Shown piece by piece: positions 6,342 through 21,166 of a stretch of DNA of 24,095 nucleotides. The position numbers were made by a program, and so were the translations under genes. The number at the start of each line of letters is the position of its first letter. Position 1 is the stretch's first letter. This DNA comes from a virus: positions 1 to 24,095 of IMG/VR virus record IMGVR_UViG_3300033141_001895. The stretch is one strand, 5' to 3'. The notes under the pieces are model-generated. The model had not been told where the DNA came from. It saw nothing but the letters and a program-made list of their open reading frames with translations, and ran no database searches.

Positions 6342-6371
6342 TTCTAACCTCCTGTTTTTATTTTATGACTC

Positions 6372-6400
6372 ATTATAGCACACTTTCTATTTTATGTCAA
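6372..6400 (-). promoter_or_regulatory. consensus sigma70/sigmaA promoter
   Basis: Minus strand TTGACA (6400-6395), a 17-bp spacer, then TATAAT (6377-6372), both boxes perfect. It drives the long leftward operon. The 5' part of the plus-strand structured RNA begins immediately on the other side, so the two are transcribed divergently. Confidence 0.9.
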
Positions 6401-6424
6401 GAACATGTTAAAAATAAATGTAAA

Positions 6425-7020
6425 CCCGATGAATACTACGGAAGAACAGAATACATCATAAATGATGTGTAAAAAACACGTTTTAAAAGAGGAAATCTAA
6501 CGGCTTGAATCCTGCGGCATGGGATGATTCTGCCTAAAAGGAATTTCAACGGCTTAAAAATGAAATTAGGGGTGTTAGAGACGATTCTAAGCAAGGAGAC
6601 GACCTCCGAAATAAACACCTGTTTTAACATACAAAAGTCATATCTTTTGTTAAAAGTGATAGAAACGTAGTGTTTGCAACGTTCAACCAATTTGTTAACG
6701 TCAACAAAAAGGTATATTTCAACGGCATGTTGAAAGTGTAAAAAAGTGAACTCATCGAGTTTTTCGAATAGTTGGTTGAGTAAAAATAAAATGTAGAATG
6801 TGATAAAAGTCATATTGTTTGGGTTGTGAGTGTGGTATTGTAAGGATAGAATCCTATATAAATCATACGTTAGTGATTCAGCAGGGTTTTCGCTGTTGAT
6901 GGGTGGCAACCCATCTAGTGTTGTTATGTCCAGGCATGGACAACTAACAAGGCGGAGTTTTAATATTACCTTGCGGCACGGCTAAGAAAGACTACGGGTT
7001 GATCGCCTGTAGTCTTTTGC
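6425..7020 (+). ncRNA. candidate large structured non-coding RNA
   Basis: About 600 nt with no plausible plus-strand gene but dense perfect hairpins. Examples are ACATCAT-aa-ATGATGT (from about 6452), AATTTC...GAAATT (around 6542-6567), a junction closed by GGTGTT/AACACC (6571-6618) holding two hairpins whose loops both carry GACGA, TTTTAA-CAAAAG/CTTTTG-TTAAAA (6622-6655), TTTCAAC-ggcat-GTTGAAA (near 6717-6735), TCAGCAG/CTGTTGA and GATGGGT-ggca-ACCCATC (6897-6914), CAAGG/CCTTG, and a terminator. Several stems contain G-U pairs only when read on the plus strand, fixing the orientation. The size, phage setting and absence of a gene recall the giant ornate RNAs ROOL and GOLLD (ROOL is about 600 nt), but I cannot confirm membership. 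No consensus promoter was found for it; the start is approximate. Confidence 0.7.
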
Positions 7021-7024
7021 TTTT
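6987..7024 (+). terminator. rho-independent terminator of the structured RNA
   Basis: AAAGACTAC and GTAGTCTTT form a 9-bp perfect stem, extended by a G-U and two G-C pairs, followed by TTTTGCTTTT on the plus strand. It marks the 3' end of the RNA at about 7018-7024 and separates it from the convergent gene at 7135-7365. Confidence 0.85.
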
Positions 7025-7041
7025 CGGTTAAACATCCCCGA

Positions 7042-7076
7042 AATGAAAAAGCCCCTGCCTTATGCGGCGGAGGCTT
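7042..7076 (-). terminator. rho-independent terminator of the 76-residue gene
   Basis: The minus strand shows AAGCCTCCGC paired with a GCAGGGGCTT arm (one mismatch, one G-U), followed by TTTTT. It lies 58 bp after the stop of the gene at 7135-7365, making that gene a single-gene transcription unit. Confidence 0.8.
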
Positions 7077-7134
7077 AATCGAATATGGCATGACCCTCAC
7101 CTTCTTTTTTCCTTTTCTTCCTTCCACGTGGCTT

Positions 7135-7365
7135 TCAGTTCCACATCGCACTTACAATGTCGTTTGCCACGCCAAGCGGCGTGAGCGGCTTTCCTTCTTC
7201 GTCCTCTGTCAGGTTCCATCTTTCGATAGCGTTATTATTTAGCTCGTTTGTAGCAGAAGGGTTTCCGCAGGTGCCGTTCGGGTCGTTCGCCCACTTCTTC
7301 GCAAGGGTAAGACCTCTTACAATTGCTTCATAGCGATCGAATTTACCTTGATTTGTTGATCTCAT
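7135..7365 (-). CDS. hypothetical protein, single-gene transcription unit
   Basis: Seventy-six residues starting MRSTNQGKFDRYEAI. The open frame runs 27 codons further upstream, but that part covers the promoter, and GGGAGG lies 5 nt before this ATG. The protein is predicted helical at both ends (YEAIVRGLTLAKKWANDP and LGVANDIVSAMWN) with a conserved-looking NGTCGNPSATNELNNNA loop between. It has its own consensus promoter and terminator, a layout often seen for early or lysogeny-linked genes. No domain is recognised. Confidence 0.7.
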   Translation of the reverse strand: MRSTNQGKFDRYEAIVRGLTLAKKWANDPNGTCGNPSATNELNNNAIERWNLTEDEEGKPLTPLGVANDIVSAMWN

Positions 7366-7395
7366 TTTTCCTCCCTTGATATTCTTTCTGTATTC

Positions 7396-7424
7396 AGTAT
7401 AACACACATCCTCCCGTTTGTCAA
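7396..7424 (-). promoter_or_regulatory. near-consensus sigma70/sigmaA promoter
   Basis: Minus strand TTGACA (7424-7419), a 17-bp spacer, TATACT (7401-7396). It drives the 76-residue gene starting at 7365. Confidence 0.88.
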
Positions 7425-7489
7425 GCATTTTATAAAGATAATTCAAATAAAGATAATATAACTGAACACGCCAGAAGCACGCTGAAGCC

Positions 7490-7600
7490 TACGCCTGAAA
7501 CAGGCTAATATCACACCATAATACACATAACGCCTGAATCCCGCTTATTCAGAATGTATGATATACTCTATACCCCCGCCTGAAGGCTTGAATCATACAT
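7490..7600. ncRNA. cluster of hairpins carrying CGCCTGAA; possible small RNA or control element
   Basis: CGCCTGAA occurs three times (7492-7499, 7531-7538, 7577-7584), each within a hairpin. These are GCCTG-AAA-CAGGC (7493-7505), CTGAAT...ATTCAG (7534-7552) and GCCT-GA-AGGC (7579-7588). The last is enclosed by a perfect 9-bp inverted repeat ATGTATGAT/ATCATACAT (7554-7562 and 7592-7600). No gene fits here. The strand and any transcription are unproven. Confidence 0.4.
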
Positions 7601-7859
7601 CATGGACATAAACTACCCCCATTCTTGGCTTGTTTTGGGACTTTTGATACATTCACGGCGGACACGGGCGCGCTCGTTCTCGGATGAGGATAGGAAAACA
7701 TACGCATACATCACGGACATACGCACCCCCCTACACCCCCTTTTGCTGTTAGACCTATATACACATGCCGCTCCGTCAAATTTATTCGGTTTTAAAGTCC
7801 GCCAAAAAGGGTTTAATTTAATTCAATTCGAATAGTCAAGGAATATTTGATGATTGAAC
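7601..7859. other. non-coding stretch between divergent promoters
   Basis: No ORF with a ribosome binding site lies here. A 17-nt repeat with one mismatch, CATACATCA(T/C)GGACATA, occurs at 7594-7610 and 7705-7721, each followed by a C-rich run. A looser relative (ATACATTCACGGCGGACA) lies near 7648. The spacing of the two good copies is 111 bp. They could be binding sites for a phage regulator controlling the divergent promoters at 7396-7424 and 7860-7888. Confidence 0.4.
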
Positions 7860-7888
7860 TTGACAACGTGTTGTTTTTATGGTATTAT
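7860..7888 (+). promoter_or_regulatory. near-consensus sigma70/sigmaA promoter
   Basis: TTGACA (7860-7865), a 17-bp spacer, TATTAT (7883-7888). It starts the rightward arm. Transcription would begin near 7895, only about 9 nt before the ATG at 7904. Confidence 0.85.
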
Positions 7889-11513: not shown

Positions 11514-11966
11514 ATGACGAAAAAAGAAAGACAACACGAAAAAGAAAAAGAAAAAATGAAACTGGCTCGTGAAACAACCGAGTGGAGGTTTGTCCAACTC
11601 GTTGAGATTGTATCGAATCCAACGGAACATAACTTAGGTGCTAAAGAAATATTCGAAAAATATGACATCCCGATTTCAACAACCAATGCAATTAAAAGGA
11701 AAGCCTCTTTTTACGAAGAGGTTAAAATGGTTAATAGAAACAGGGCAATCGAAAACACAGCACCTATTTTTGACGCTCTTATCAATAAAGCGAAATCAGG
11801 GCATGCACCGAGCATTAAACTGTTTTTCGAGGTAACAAGACAGTATGAAACTTTCCACAACCACAAACATGAGGTTAAACACAAAGAAGAGATTGCGAAA
11901 ATGACTACGGAGCAAATCATTGAAAGAATTAAACAAACGTCGATAAACTTTGTTTCTAATAACTAA
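11514..11966 (+). CDS. terS: terminase small subunit (TerS)
   Basis: This 150-residue protein sits immediately before the large terminase, as TerS does. It begins with a very charged tail (MTKKERQHEKEKEKMKLARE), then a helix-turn-helix-like part (LGAKEIFEKYDIPISTTNAI) for recognising the packaging start on the genome, then GHAPSIKLFFEVTRQYE, a common TerS pattern, and a C-terminal helix (TTEQIIERIKQTS) that normally contacts TerL. AAGGTGATG lies somewhat far (about 14 nt) from the ATG, so the internal start MKLARET (residue 15) is an alternative. Confidence 0.82.
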   Translation: MTKKERQHEKEKEKMKLARETTEWRFVQLVEIVSNPTEHNLGAKEIFEKYDIPISTTNAIKRKASFYEEVKMVNRNRAIENTAPIFDALINKAKSGHAPSIKLFFEVTRQYETFHNHKHEVKHKEEIAKMTTEQIIERIKQTSINFVSNN

Positions 11967-11981
11967 TCATGGCGGGGTGTA

Positions 11982-12671
11982 ATGACAACAGAGGAAAAAG
12001 AAAGAACAAGGGCGATTAATCGCTATAACCTCAATGTTGCATGTGGTGATGAAAAGCGTGCCGCTTTAGAGTGGGAGTTATGTAAGAGGGATCCATGGCA
12101 TTGGATATATAATTGGGTGTGGACGTTAGACACACATGACAAAAAGTGTCCAAAGAAATGGTTTCCCGACAAAGAATATATCAAGAGATTTGTGGAGGTT
12201 TACCAAAAAGAAGATTTGTTGTTGGTTCCAAAATCAAGGCAAATGATGTTGACGTGGATATGTGTATCATTATTCTTACATGAAGCAATCTTTAATAACG
12301 GGCGTTATCTGTTCATGATTTCCAAGAAGGAAAAAGACGCCGACGATCTGGTTCAAAAGAGAATAAAATACATATACGACCAATTGCCAAAGTTTATGCA
12401 ACCAAAAGTAGTTTTTACTTTTTGTAATGCAAATTTCCCCGACAATAATTGTGTTATACATGGTTTTCCTCAAGGGGCAGACCAAATTCGTTCGCAAACA
12501 GCATCGACGGTTTTGGTGGACGAGGCTGCGTTTCAGCCAGAAGCGGAGTCAACGTATGAGGCGATTAAACCGTCAATTGATGGCGGGGGTAAGATTATAA
12601 TGATTTCATCGGCGAACCCAGGTTTCTTTGAGAGGCTGGTGAACGATAAAACGGAAATGGCTGACAAATAA
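11982..12671 (+). CDS. terL: terminase large subunit, ATPase half (split TerL)
   Basis: A 229-residue protein equivalent to the N-terminal motor domain of TerL. It has LLLVPKSRQMMLTW (about 79-92, Walker A-like loop; the usual glycine is replaced by Met), STVLVDEAAF (175-183, Walker B with catalytic Asp180-Glu181) and MISSANPGFFERLV (207-220, coupling motif). It stops soon after at 12671, where an intact TerL continues to its nuclease domain. The nuclease is encoded by a separate gene at 12940. It pumps DNA into the prohead with the energy of ATP. GGGG lies 5 nt before the ATG. Confidence 0.9.
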   Translation: MTTEEKERTRAINRYNLNVACGDEKRAALEWELCKRDPWHWIYNWVWTLDTHDKKCPKKWFPDKEYIKRFVEVYQKEDLLLVPKSRQMMLTWICVSLFLHEAIFNNGRYLFMISKKEKDADDLVQKRIKYIYDQLPKFMQPKVVFTFCNANFPDNNCVIHGFPQGADQIRSQTASTVLVDEAAFQPEAESTYEAIKPSIDGGGKIIMISSANPGFFERLVNDKTEMADK

Positions 12672-12680
12672 GGGGGCGTG

Positions 12681-12956
12681 ATGGATTTCTCTAAAGATGA
12701 TGCTGTAGATGCTTTTAGCGAAATTGTTGACATTGCAAAAAACAAACAAAGAGCAAAACAAGCAATAGATGGATACAAACCAACGTTCAACGGAATTATA
12801 ATTGTGTATGAAAGCGATGATAAAGATGTTGGTTTCCATTTTATAAACAGTAATTTCGCCTCGGCAAGACAATCTCTGTTGAGAGCAGCAGATATATTTC
12901 TTAAAACAGAGATGAAAGAAGAATTATACGGAGAACTCGATGAAGGGAATCTATGA
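12681..12956 (+). CDS. unknown 91-residue protein inserted between the TerL halves
   Basis: It reads MDFSKDDAVDAFSEIVDIAK and continues with TFNGIIIVYESDDKDVGFHF, then INSNFASARQSLLRAADIFL and an acidic end (EELYGELDEGNL). The pattern of a helix, a short beta hairpin and a long helix fits small phage proteins of unknown function. No endonuclease (HNH, GIY-YIG, LAGLIDADG) motif is seen, so it is not an obvious homing element. AGGGGG precedes the ATG; GTG at 12678 is an alternative start. Its end overlaps the nuclease gene by 17 nt, coupling their translation. Confidence 0.72.
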   Translation: MDFSKDDAVDAFSEIVDIAKNKQRAKQAIDGYKPTFNGIIIVYESDDKDVGFHFINSNFASARQSLLRAADIFLKTEMKEELYGELDEGNL

Positions 12957-13773
12957 GAGAAAGAACAAAAACGGCTTTTATGTGTTTAGGATACACTACT
13001 CGGCTGATCCCGACAAAGATCCCGACACAAAGCAGGGTAAGGTATGGTATGATAAAGTCCGCAAGGGAATGATGGATAAATCATGGCAGAAGGAATACGA
13101 GATTGACTGGTTCGCAAAATCGGGAGAACTCGTTTATCCGATGTTTGATCCTTCCGTTCATGTAGTTCAACCCTTCGCAATACCAAAGAGTTGGACACGG
13201 TATATGGCATTAGACCCTGGTTTAAGGAATCCGACGGCGGCGTTATGGGCGGCGGTTGATCCTGATGATAATATATATTTCTATCGGGAATACTACAAAG
13301 CGGAGATGACACCGAAAGAACATGCCGTTGTAATAAAGGAGTTAGAAAAAGGGGAAAAGATATTTGTAAGACTCATCGATCCTGCGGCACGTGGCAGGGA
13401 TATGACAACAAAGAAGTCGGTGAGCGAGTCTTACGCCGAAAATAAACTGTTTTTTATCGAGGCAAACAACAAGGTTGAACTCGGTATATCGAAAGTTCAA
13501 GAAGCAATGAAAATCGGCAAGACAGGTCCAAGGATGTATGTATTCAGCACGTTGAGAAATTACATACAAGAAAAGAGTGAATATAGGTGGCATCAGGAAA
13601 CCGAAACGGTTTTAAGGCAAAAAGATCCGACTGAGAAGCCGATAAAGAAACGAGATCACCTTATGGACTGCGAAAGATATATAATAGTGGCTAATCCGCA
13701 CTATAGGCGGATATACGGGTTTAAGAAAAACAAGGACATTCATGTTTGGGATGGAATGTCAACGGGGTATTAA
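12940..13773 (+). CDS. terL: terminase large subunit, nuclease half (split TerL)
   Basis: A 277-residue protein that carries on where the ATPase half stops: KNGFYVFRIHYSADPDKDPD, then SWQKEYEIDWFAKSGELVYP. The RNase H-type nuclease has its three acidic sites: ALDPG (Asp92), LIDPAA (Asp147) and KRDHLMDC (Asp239/Asp243). It cuts the DNA concatemer at start and end of packaging. Together with the ATPase half it gives about 506 residues, normal for an intact TerL. GGAG lies 8 nt before the ATG inside the preceding gene. Both halves appear intact, so the enzyme probably works as two chains. Confidence 0.9.
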   Translation: MKGIYERKNKNGFYVFRIHYSADPDKDPDTKQGKVWYDKVRKGMMDKSWQKEYEIDWFAKSGELVYPMFDPSVHVVQPFAIPKSWTRYMALDPGLRNPTAALWAAVDPDDNIYFYREYYKAEMTPKEHAVVIKELEKGEKIFVRLIDPAARGRDMTTKKSVSESYAENKLFFIEANNKVELGISKVQEAMKIGKTGPRMYVFSTLRNYIQEKSEYRWHQETETVLRQKDPTEKPIKKRDHLMDCERYIIVANPHYRRIYGFKKNKDIHVWDGMSTGY

Positions 13774-18613: not shown

Positions 18614-18641
18614 GGGGAGTCTTTGCGGCTCCCCATTTTTT
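18614..18641 (+). terminator. rho-independent terminator after the capsid gene
   Basis: GGGGAG, a nine-base loop and CTCCCC form a 6-bp G+C-rich stem, followed by A and six T (18636-18641). It lies 27 bp after the major capsid stop and 18 bp before the fibre gene's start. No promoter is seen after it, so the genes downstream depend on read-through or on an unrecognised promoter. Confidence 0.85.
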
Positions 18642-18658
18642 CACAAAGGAGTGATATA

Positions 18659-21166
18659 ATGTTTAGAAACAAAACAATACTTGCCGTTATAATGATTATG
18701 GCGTTATTGTTTATTCCTATAGCAAGTGCCGATACGACCCACTACCACAGTATCGGCTTCATAGGAGATACGGTAAAGCCTGATTCAACTACTGTAACAG
18801 CATGGTTATATGATGGCGATGGGAACTTGCTGTTTGCATCGGGAACCACGGCTCCCTCTTCTGAAGAAGGTTACGCCAAGGGTTGCACGTTTTTGGATAC
18901 AGATGCAACGGGTGATAGTATATATCTGACCAACAAAGGAACCACAAGTTCTTGCACATTTTCAACAGGAACGGCGGCAACTTCCTTTATTGCGTTGACT
19001 GATACACCCGTGGGTATAACTACAAATACTTATTACAAAGGTGATAGTGCTGGGACTGCTCTTGACGCAGGCATTGTAATGGGAACCACAACCGCCACAA
19101 ATGGTAATGTTCTCATTGCCGATGGAACTGACTGGGATACCTCAACAAAAGATTCTGCAGGCATTGTTACCAAAAGTGGCGATCAGACAGGTATTGCTGG
19201 TGCGAAGACATGGACAGGAGCGGCTACATTTAGCAGTAGTGTTGCTGTTGCAGGCGGGCAGAAATTAACACTAAGAGATGCAACAGAATATATTTATTCT
19301 TCTGCAAATGGTCAAACTGATATTGCCGCAACCGATAAGGTTCAGATTGTAACTTCCACTGTTGATATTAACGGTGCTGTTACAATGTCTGGTAATATGC
19401 TTGCTGAATCAACTGCTGAGGTTCAGTTCTATGATAGTGATATGGCTATCAGAGCGATGAGCGACGGCACGCTTGGCGTTAAGGCTGATACAGAGGTTCA
19501 AATAGATACAACCACATTAGACATTAATGCTAATGTTGATATATCTGGAACATTGGGCGTTACAGGTGCTTTAACAGCCTCATCCACGACAGCATTAAAT
19601 GATACTGTTACAGTTGGGACTGACAAGAAATTGCAGTTCAGAGATACTGGTTTGTTTGTTCGGTCTGGAACTGATGGCAAATTGACTTACTCTTCAGATG
19701 GTGCTGGTGATGACGACCATTCGTTTATTGGAACTGTAACTTTCAGCGATGCTGCCTTGTTTAGAGAAGACGTAAAATTGCAGTTCAGAGATAGCGGTGT
19801 ATATGCACAGTCTGGAACTGATGGCAAATTTACATTATCTTCAGATGGCACAGGTGCGGACGACATCACACTTGATGGAACTGTTACCTTTGGTGATGAC
19901 ACAATCTTGGGAACAGACAAGAAAATACAGTTTAGAGATACTGGTATCTATGCACAATCTGGTGCTGACGGCAAGTTGACCATTGCGGCAGATGGCACAG
20001 GCTCTGACGACATTACAATATCTGGCACATTGGCATTAAGTGATGATGTTCTTGTCGATACTGATAAATCTATTCAATTTAGAGATATTGGTATTTATAT
20101 GAAGTCTGGATCAGATGGTAAATTGACTATATCATCTGATGGTGTTGGAGCCGACGATATTACAATGGACGGAACTGTAACATTCAGTGATGATGCTATC
20201 TTTAGCACTGACAAAAAAATACAGTTTAGAGATACTGGAAATTATATCAAATCAGGATCTGACGGAGAATTTAACTTCTACTCAGATGGAACTGGTGCAG
20301 ACGCTTTTAATGTTGTATCCGACGGTGGATTTGTTCTTGATGCCGTAGATGCAGTTGATGTTAATAGTTCAACAAGCACAATTAACATTGCTAATGATGA
20401 TATTGATCAGGCTGTAAATGTTGCGACAGACGGAGAGAGAACCGTAACCATCGGTTCCGTTAATGGTGCTGCTGGTTTAGTTCTTCAGGCTGGAACAGGC
20501 AATTTCAGTATGGCTGGTGTTGCTGCTTCTACGTTTACATTTGGCAAGGCAGATCAGACTGGCACAATGTCTTTTGCTGCTTCTACAGGGGCATTAACCT
20601 GCAATATCGCAACAGGTGCAACTGGCAATAAGACCGTTCATATTGCCGATCACGACACACCCGCAAGCACAATTACACAGGGTGGTGCTGCATCTACAGT
20701 AACGCTTGATGGTGCAACAATTACAATTGGTGATAGTGATACCGTAAGAACAACTGGTATCGCAACTGGCAATGCCGTGCAGACAGTTAATGTTATGACA
20801 CATGACACCCCTGTAAGCACATATAGCCTCGGCGGAACAAACTCAAAAGTAAACATTAAAGCCAATGCTGGCATTACAATGGCGGCAGTTAACTACGCTG
20901 CAGATGCTGGCGGCGATGATGCTTATGTAACAACGCTTTCACCCGCCCCAACGGCTTATACAACAGGACAAATGTTTCTCCTTAAAGTGGCAACCGCCAA
21001 TACTGATGGTTGTTCGCTTGACGTAAACGGACTTGGAGCATTGGCAATTAAAACTGCAACAGGCACAGATCCAGCAACCAACGATATTGTTGCAACAAGC
21101 ATTGCGATAATTGTCTATGATGGCACAGATTTTCTGCTTGTTAATCCCGCGACTACAACCGACTAA
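18659..21166 (+). CDS. secreted-type fibre or adhesin-like repeat protein
   Basis: An 835-residue protein starting MFRNKTILAVIMIMALLFIP, a textbook Sec signal peptide (basic start, hydrophobic core, then IASA before DTTHYHS). Residues about 320-560 hold five tandem 49-residue repeats with the core (K/S)(L/I)QFRD.G.Y..SG.DGK and an SDG.G.DD...GT unit. The C-terminal 100 residues (TLSPAPTAYTTGQMFLLKVA and beyond, with VYDGTDFLLVNPA) match the shape of many phage tail-fibre ends. AAGGAG lies 6-7 nt before ATG 18659. Host attachment is the likely role, but the signal peptide would send it across the membrane, unusual for a virion fibre. It may instead be an exported surface protein. Confidence 0.75.
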   Translation: MFRNKTILAVIMIMALLFIPIASADTTHYHSIGFIGDTVKPDSTTVTAWLYDGDGNLLFASGTTAPSSEEGYAKGCTFLDTDATGDSIYLTNKGTTSSCTFSTGTAATSFIALTDTPVGITTNTYYKGDSAGTALDAGIVMGTTTATNGNVLIADGTDWDTSTKDSAGIVTKSGDQTGIAGAKTWTGAATFSSSVAVAGGQKLTLRDATEYIYSSANGQTDIAATDKVQIVTSTVDINGAVTMSGNMLAESTAEVQFYDSDMAIRAMSDGTLGVKADTEVQIDTTTLDINANVDISGTLGVTGALTASSTTALNDTVTVGTDKKLQFRDTGLFVRSGTDGKLTYSSDGAGDDDHSFIGTVTFSDAALFREDVKLQFRDSGVYAQSGTDGKFTLSSDGTGADDITLDGTVTFGDDTILGTDKKIQFRDTGIYAQSGADGKLTIAADGTGSDDITISGTLALSDDVLVDTDKSIQFRDIGIYMKSGSDGKLTISSDGVGADDITMDGTVTFSDDAIFSTDKKIQFRDTGNYIKSGSDGEFNFYSDGTGADAFNVVSDGGFVLDAVDAVDVNSSTSTINIANDDIDQAVNVATDGERTVTIGSVNGAAGLVLQAGTGNFSMAGVAASTFTFGKADQTGTMSFAASTGALTCNIATGATGNKTVHIADHDTPASTITQGGAASTVTLDGATITIGDSDTVRTTGIATGNAVQTVNVMTHDTPVSTYSLGGTNSKVNIKANAGITMAAVNYAADAGGDDAYVTTLSPAPTAYTTGQMFLLKVATANTDGCSLDVNGLGALAIKTATGTDPATNDIVATSIAIIVYDGTDFLLVNPATTTD
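19619..20339 (+). repeat. five tandem 147-nt coding repeats
   Basis: The QFRD core codons start at 19634, 19781, 19928, 20075 and 20222, exactly 147 nt apart with no indel. Each unit encodes 49 residues. The last unit is degenerate, and two weaker relatives lie upstream near 19260 and 19424. The units have diverged in codon use, so the duplication is not recent. Confidence 0.9.

What the first reader, a model, noticed from the sequence alone, without database searches (positions are those of the whole stretch)
6425..7020. Large ornate non-coding RNA, possibly ROOL/GOLLD-like
About 600 nt with no plus-strand gene, many perfect or near-perfect stems, a multi-branch junction whose two hairpin loops share GACGA, recurrent AACGGC loop sequences (about 6499, 6548, 6721), and an intrinsic terminator. 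G-U pairs in at least two stems fit only plus-strand RNA. Known facts: ROOL and GOLLD are large phage-associated structured RNAs of unknown function, ROOL averaging near this length. Membership in either class, or a new class, is inference.
Basis: partly seen in the sequence, partly recalled or inferred. Interest (0 to 1): 0.88.

Follow-up and report, generated by a model that had tools for sequence, protein, structure and literature searches.

The report
Orphan phage non-coding RNA candidate
Between the early and late genes of an uncultured bacteriophage lies a roughly 600-base stretch that codes for no recognisable protein, folds well and ends in a clear transcription stop, so it is probably an RNA gene; it is not ROOL or GOLLD, no relative was found to prove its structure, and it carries one copy of an apparently undescribed 28-bp palindrome found in many unrelated phages.

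Summary
The observation largely holds. Window 6342-7134 has no gene-like reading frame, a strong plus-strand intrinsic terminator (6986-7018) and a plausible multi-domain fold. The fold is only moderately unusual: z = -5.65 with the terminator and -3.30 without it, and 7 of 94 same-sized windows of this phage score about as low. ROOL and GOLLD are rejected: Rfam gives no match, even at E = 10. No homologue turned up among about 160 relatives of the phage's portal and recombinase genes, 50 whole viral records, 449 bacterial genomes, or three direct scans of IMG/VR with sequences from the region. The only other copy is identical, in a longer contig of the same phage, so covariation cannot be tested. 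A 181-codon minus-strand open frame is a rival, but lacks gene-like codon use and a ribosome-binding site at a useful start. Best reading: an orphan stand-alone structured RNA transcribed rightward from the early/late divergence, function unproven. By-product: 6686-6713 is a degenerate copy of a 28-bp palindrome (half-site AYCATTTTGTTGAC) found in 90 distinct contexts in unrelated viral contigs, both between genes and inside dinD-like genes. I found no description of it in the papers searched.

The parts
6400..7020 (+). Candidate non-coding RNA, 5' end inferred at about 6400-6423, 3' end at the terminator
   Evidence: No coding-like frame; fold z -5.65, -3.30 without terminator
6365..6393 (+). 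Weak candidate promoter ATGACT-N17-TATTTT (8 of 12), overlapping the minus-strand promoter
   Evidence: Read by eye; below the scan threshold; inference
6372..6400 (-). Perfect sigma-70-type promoter TTGACA-17-TATAAT for the leftward early operon
6423..6429 (+). Overall closing helix, 5' arm, pairs with 6819-6825 (probability 0.82)
6431..6675 (+). 5' domain, closed by 10-bp helix 6431-6440/6666-6675 (probability 0.88)
   Evidence: z -3.31
6570..6619 (+). Alternative local three-way junction with the two GACGA hairpins
   Evidence: z -1.62; not in the global MFE
6682..6780 (+). Middle domain, closed by 10-bp helix 6682-6691/6771-6780 (probability 0.83)
6686..6713 (.). Degenerate copy of the dispersed 28-bp palindrome (consensus AYCATTTTGTTGACGTCAACAAAATGRT)
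6797..6816 (+). Stable linker hairpin AAUGUGAU/GUCAUAUU (probability 0.97)
6818..6985 (+). 3' domain: multi-branched, G-U-rich closing helix and several hairpins; used as covariance model R1
   Evidence: z -3.60
6986..7018 (+). Intrinsic terminator
   Evidence: z -5.52
7044..7076 (-). Minus-strand terminator-like hairpin AAGCCUCCGCC...GGCAGGGGCUUUUU that would stop leftward transcription before the RNA region
   Evidence: -19.5 kcal/mol, z -4.24; tail read by eye
7396..7424 (-). Promoter TTGACA-17-TATACT of the leftward gene 7135-7446
6436..6981 (-). Open frame of 181 codons (157 aa from a TTG), judged not a gene

Best explanation
A stand-alone non-coding RNA gene of about 600 nt. It is transcribed rightward from the divergent early/late control region (start about 6400) and ends at its own terminator (7018). 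The transcript folds into a 5' domain, a middle domain and a multi-branched 3' domain, with a long-range helix enclosing the first two. The most likely mode of action is as a trans-acting folded RNA made during infection, that is, a scaffold or binding surface for protein, ribosome or RNA partners, in the manner proposed for ROOL/GOLLD, but from an unrelated sequence. Shown: absence of a normal gene, the terminator, and better-than-shuffled folding. Inferred: transcription, start site, exact fold and function.
For: A gap of about 790 nt in an otherwise gene-dense phage, with no coding-like frame. The terminator points rightward. The fold is better than shuffles, and the closing helices have pairing probabilities of 0.82-0.88. 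There are 25 G-U pairs on plus against 8 on minus. A minus-strand terminator-like hairpin at 7044-7076 and a perfect minus promoter at 6400-6372 bracket the region, so leftward transcription need not cross it. Candidate rightward promoters for the next rightward genes lie at 7860 and 8254, so the RNA need not be their leader.
Against: No homologue, so no covariation. Fold stability is not exceptional for this phage, and the minus strand scores nearly as well. No good plus-strand promoter. The minus frame is unexpectedly open. No expression data.
Confidence: 0.48

Rival explanations
1. DNA control region without a functional long RNA: divergent promoters, a protein-binding palindrome and a terminator at the early/late boundary; the other stems are AT-rich coincidence.
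For: Phage-wide palindrome at 6686-6713; overlapping promoters; fold z within the range of other windows of this phage; no homologues.
Against: Long-range closing helices are not local palindromes; a terminator of this strength implies a plus-strand transcript that ends there; 600 bases is long for a simple operator region.
Confidence: 0.22
2. Rightward leader with a terminator under antitermination control, like the lambda pR'-6S RNA-tR' region or HK022 put sites (from general knowledge); the fold would be the antitermination signal.
For: Lies on the late strand at the early/late divergence and ends in a terminator upstream of the rightward genes.
Against: A leftward gene with its own promoter (7135-7446) lies between, and candidate rightward promoters exist at 7860 and 8254.
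Confidence: 0.12
3. An unusual protein gene on the minus strand (6436-6981), part of the leftward early operon.
For: 181 codons without a stop (4 of 4000 shuffles); neighbours on both sides are leftward genes; the frame reads LFVDVNKLV like dinD-type genes.
Against: Codon score -0.134 against 0.015 to 0.305 for 26 window genes; first-position purines 0.48 against at least 0.62 in 21 genes; no Shine-Dalgarno at any start except a TTG at 6594, while 7 of 10 leftward genes have a perfect AGGAGG; no Pfam, NCBIfam or PHROG match; single-sequence model pLDDT 57 (weak evidence).
Confidence: 0.08
4. A highly diverged ROOL or GOLLD that the Rfam models miss.
For: Size near the ROOL model length (574 positions), phage location, large multi-branched fold.
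Against: No match; hits of 8.6 bits or less elsewhere in the contig; none for GOLLD; no tRNA island at the locus.
Confidence: 0.03

Closest known systems
ROOL RNA (RF03087)
   Same: Phage-encoded, about 600 nt, elaborate predicted fold, no associated protein recognised
   Different: No covariance-model match; no tRNA island at the locus; ROOL has many members with covariation (1,596 non-redundant in PMC12286853), this has one
GOLLD RNA (RF02032)
   Same: Large structured phage RNA
   Different: No match at all; GOLLD members often exceed 800 nt and share a conserved 3' region (PMC12286853)
Lambda 6S RNA / Q-dependent tR' leader (general knowledge)
   Same: Non-coding transcript ending at an intrinsic terminator next to the late genes
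   Different: About three times longer; an intervening leftward gene and candidate downstream promoters
dinD / BRO-N-type antirepressor genes (for the palindrome only)
   Same: The palindrome inside them reads (D)HFVDVNKMV, and the window copy reads LFVDVNKLV on the minus strand
   Different: The window open frame has no family match and lacks the rest of the DinD protein

Membership tests
ROOL (RF03087) | Match to the Rfam covariance model at 99.1 bits | tested here: not met
ROOL (RF03087) | Often near a tRNA island | tested here: not met
   No tRNA in the window; one tRNA-like cluster about 16 kb away
ROOL (RF03087) | Octameric nanocage with conserved kissing loops | not testable with these tools
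   Needs cryo-EM or native gels; feature from PMC12286853
GOLLD (RF02032) | Match to the Rfam covariance model at 150 bits | tested here: not met
Any described RNA family (Rfam 15, 4227 models) | Match at or above the gathering score | tested here: not met
   best sub-threshold hits are chance-level
Conserved structured RNA class | Homologues with covarying helices | tested here: inconclusive
   Only an identical copy found
Protein-coding gene (minus strand) | Phage-like codon use and a ribosome-binding site at the start | tested here: not met
Intrinsically terminated transcript | GC-containing hairpin followed by a U tract | tested here: met

The most novel reading that the evidence does not exclude
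A new class of large structured phage RNA, unrelated to ROOL, GOLLD and the other Rfam families, made at the early/late switch and carrying within its middle domain a copy of a phage-wide 28-bp palindrome that a common regulator or enzyme recognises.
Probability: 0.2. Interest if true: 0.75.

Novelty: new variant of a known kind. Interest (0 to 1): 0.42.

Why it matters
Large structured phage RNAs are few and their functions unknown; a further independent one would help separate what the kind needs from what one family happens to have. The embedded palindrome may be the more testable lead: a sharply bounded 28-bp dyad shared by unrelated phages implies a common recognising factor.

Tried and rejected
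ROOL/GOLLD membership. Homologues by blastn/nhmmer in portal and recombinase relatives. A six-pattern IMG/VR scan built from the minus-frame translation found only the phage itself. Two direct motif scans gave 71 and 11 stretches; none aligns to the RNA beyond the motif, and the L362 hit is inside a coding frame. Covariance model R1 of the 3' domain: nothing in 111 sources (95 including the window and its own contig, plus 16), 50 whole virus records, 391 genomes of one class and 58 of one phylum; a 14.4-bit hit in L180 is 50 nt and 62% GC and was discounted. These negatives are weak, because a single-sequence model has limited reach. AACGGC as a specific signature: it is a common word in the phage. 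A local protein partner of the palindrome: the most widespread protein clusters reach only 10 of 118 loci, one being DinD-like. The palindrome as a bacterial chromosomal motif: 1 of 391 genomes against 1 for the reversed control.

Full report
What the window is. The window is an IMG/VR virus record of 24,095 bases. Another record (IMGVR_UViG_3300033148_006358, 46,573 bases, called G001 here) matches window 3774-24095 at 100%, so it adds length but no variation. The phage has an SU10-like portal, a Mu gpT-like capsid protein, a two-gene terminase and, on the leftward side, a sliding clamp, RecT, a YqaJ exonuclease and a helicase-loader-like protein. Leftward genes run from about 30 to 12 kb of G001 and rightward genes from about 30 kb onward. 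The finding lies at that divergence, on the rightward strand (28,243-28,873 of G001).

Is it non-coding? Plus-strand frames in 6380-7130 are at most 51 codons. The minus strand has a 181-codon open frame (6436-6981), longer than expected: only 4 of 4000 dinucleotide shuffles of the region reach it. It does not look translated. Its codon log-odds score is -0.134, among the spurious frames, while the 26 genes used for training score 0.015 to 0.305. Its first codon position is 48% purine against at least 62% in 21 genes. None of its usable starts has a Shine-Dalgarno match, the one exception being a TTG at 6594, although 7 of 10 leftward genes carry a perfect AGGAGG. No Pfam, NCBIfam or PHROG model matches. 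The openness of that frame remains unexplained.

Is it structured? RNAfold gives -167.4 kcal/mol for 6400-7030 (z -5.65), but the terminator contributes much of this: without it 6423-6985 has z -3.30 on plus and -3.04 on minus. Windows of the same length sampled across the phage average -1.09 (sd 1.34), and 7 of 94 are about as low. So the fold is better than chance but not outstanding. Helices with high pairing probability are 6423-6429/6819-6825 (0.82), 6431-6440/6666-6675 (0.88), 6682-6691/6771-6780 (0.83), 6797-6804/6809-6816 (0.97), several hairpins in 6861-6950 and the terminator 6986-6999/7005-7018 (0.97).

Transcription signals. The minus strand has a perfect TTGACA-17-TATAAT at 6400-6372 and TTGACA-17-TATACT at 7424-7396, and a terminator-like hairpin at 7044-7076. 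The plus strand has the strong terminator at 6986-7018 and candidate promoters for the next rightward genes at 7860 and 8254. No good plus-strand promoter was found for the RNA itself; ATGACT-N17-TATTTT at 6365-6393 is a by-eye candidate that overlaps the leftward promoter.

Family membership. No Rfam family matches at gathering thresholds, and nothing credible at E up to 10. ROOL gives 8.6 and 7.5 bits in a tRNA-containing region about 16 kb away, GOLLD nothing. ROOL and GOLLD are phage RNAs often near tRNA islands, known from many members (PMC12286853); neither model matches here and there is no tRNA in the window.

Search for relatives. Portal searches of IMG/VR and GTDB genomes returned, apart from the identical contig, only proteins at about 43% identity or less, and RecT gave at most 43%. 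None of these loci contains the RNA by blastn or nhmmer or by a covariance model of the 3' domain. Three direct IMG/VR scans with region-derived patterns found only the phage itself. Therefore covariation, the decisive test, could not be done. The single-sequence model has limited reach, so these negatives are not strong.

The palindrome. A 29/29 match to an Eremiobacterota MAG led to 6686-6713 as a degenerate copy of a dispersed palindrome. Arm complementarity is high for five bases outside the core (58 to 76 of 90) and falls to near chance from the sixth (15 to 30 of 90), giving a sharply bounded 28-bp site with half-site AYCATTTTGTTGAC. Copies lie between genes, some beside promoter-like sequences and one directly downstream of a tRNA-like 3' end, and inside dinD-like genes where they encode (D)HFVDVNKMV. 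It is rare in the sampled bacterial genomes (1 of 391, equal to the control) and absent at this sensitivity from E. coli genomes. No protein is shared widely by the loci, and no held paper found contains the core sequence. The scans had no matched random control in the viral collection, so the enrichment there rests on the sharp arm conservation.

Conclusion. The most likely reading is an orphan stand-alone structured RNA gene (0.48), followed by a DNA control region (0.22), an antitermination leader (0.12), a minus-strand gene (0.08) and a diverged ROOL/GOLLD (0.03).

Noticed in passing
window 6686-6713; L182:385-413; L190-L308: 28-bp palindrome AYCATTTTGTTGACGTCAACAAAATGRT dispersed in unrelated phages, 90 distinct contexts, both intergenic and inside dinD-like genes. 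Not found in the papers searched.
   Followed up: partly
G001 11826-12050 minus (L088): DUF3800-IX RNA, then an ~80-nt tmRNA-like element with a CCA end and no room for a tag frame, then a tRNA called with a four-base anticodon.
   Followed up: no
window 11982-13773: Terminase large subunit split into two genes (ATPase part 11982-12671, nuclease part 12940-13773) with a 92-codon frame of unknown family between them.
   Followed up: partly
window 7450-7860: Second non-coding stretch of about 400 nt, weakly folding (z +3.0 at 7600-7799), with a 25-nt imperfect repeat at 7596 and 7707 (20 of 25); possibly an origin.
   Followed up: no
window 6436-6981 minus: 181-codon open frame without gene-like codon use; its openness (4 of 4000 shuffles) is unexplained.
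   Followed up: yes
window 19614-20303: Internal repeats of about 72-78% identity within the gene 18623-21166 (self-matches).
   Followed up: no
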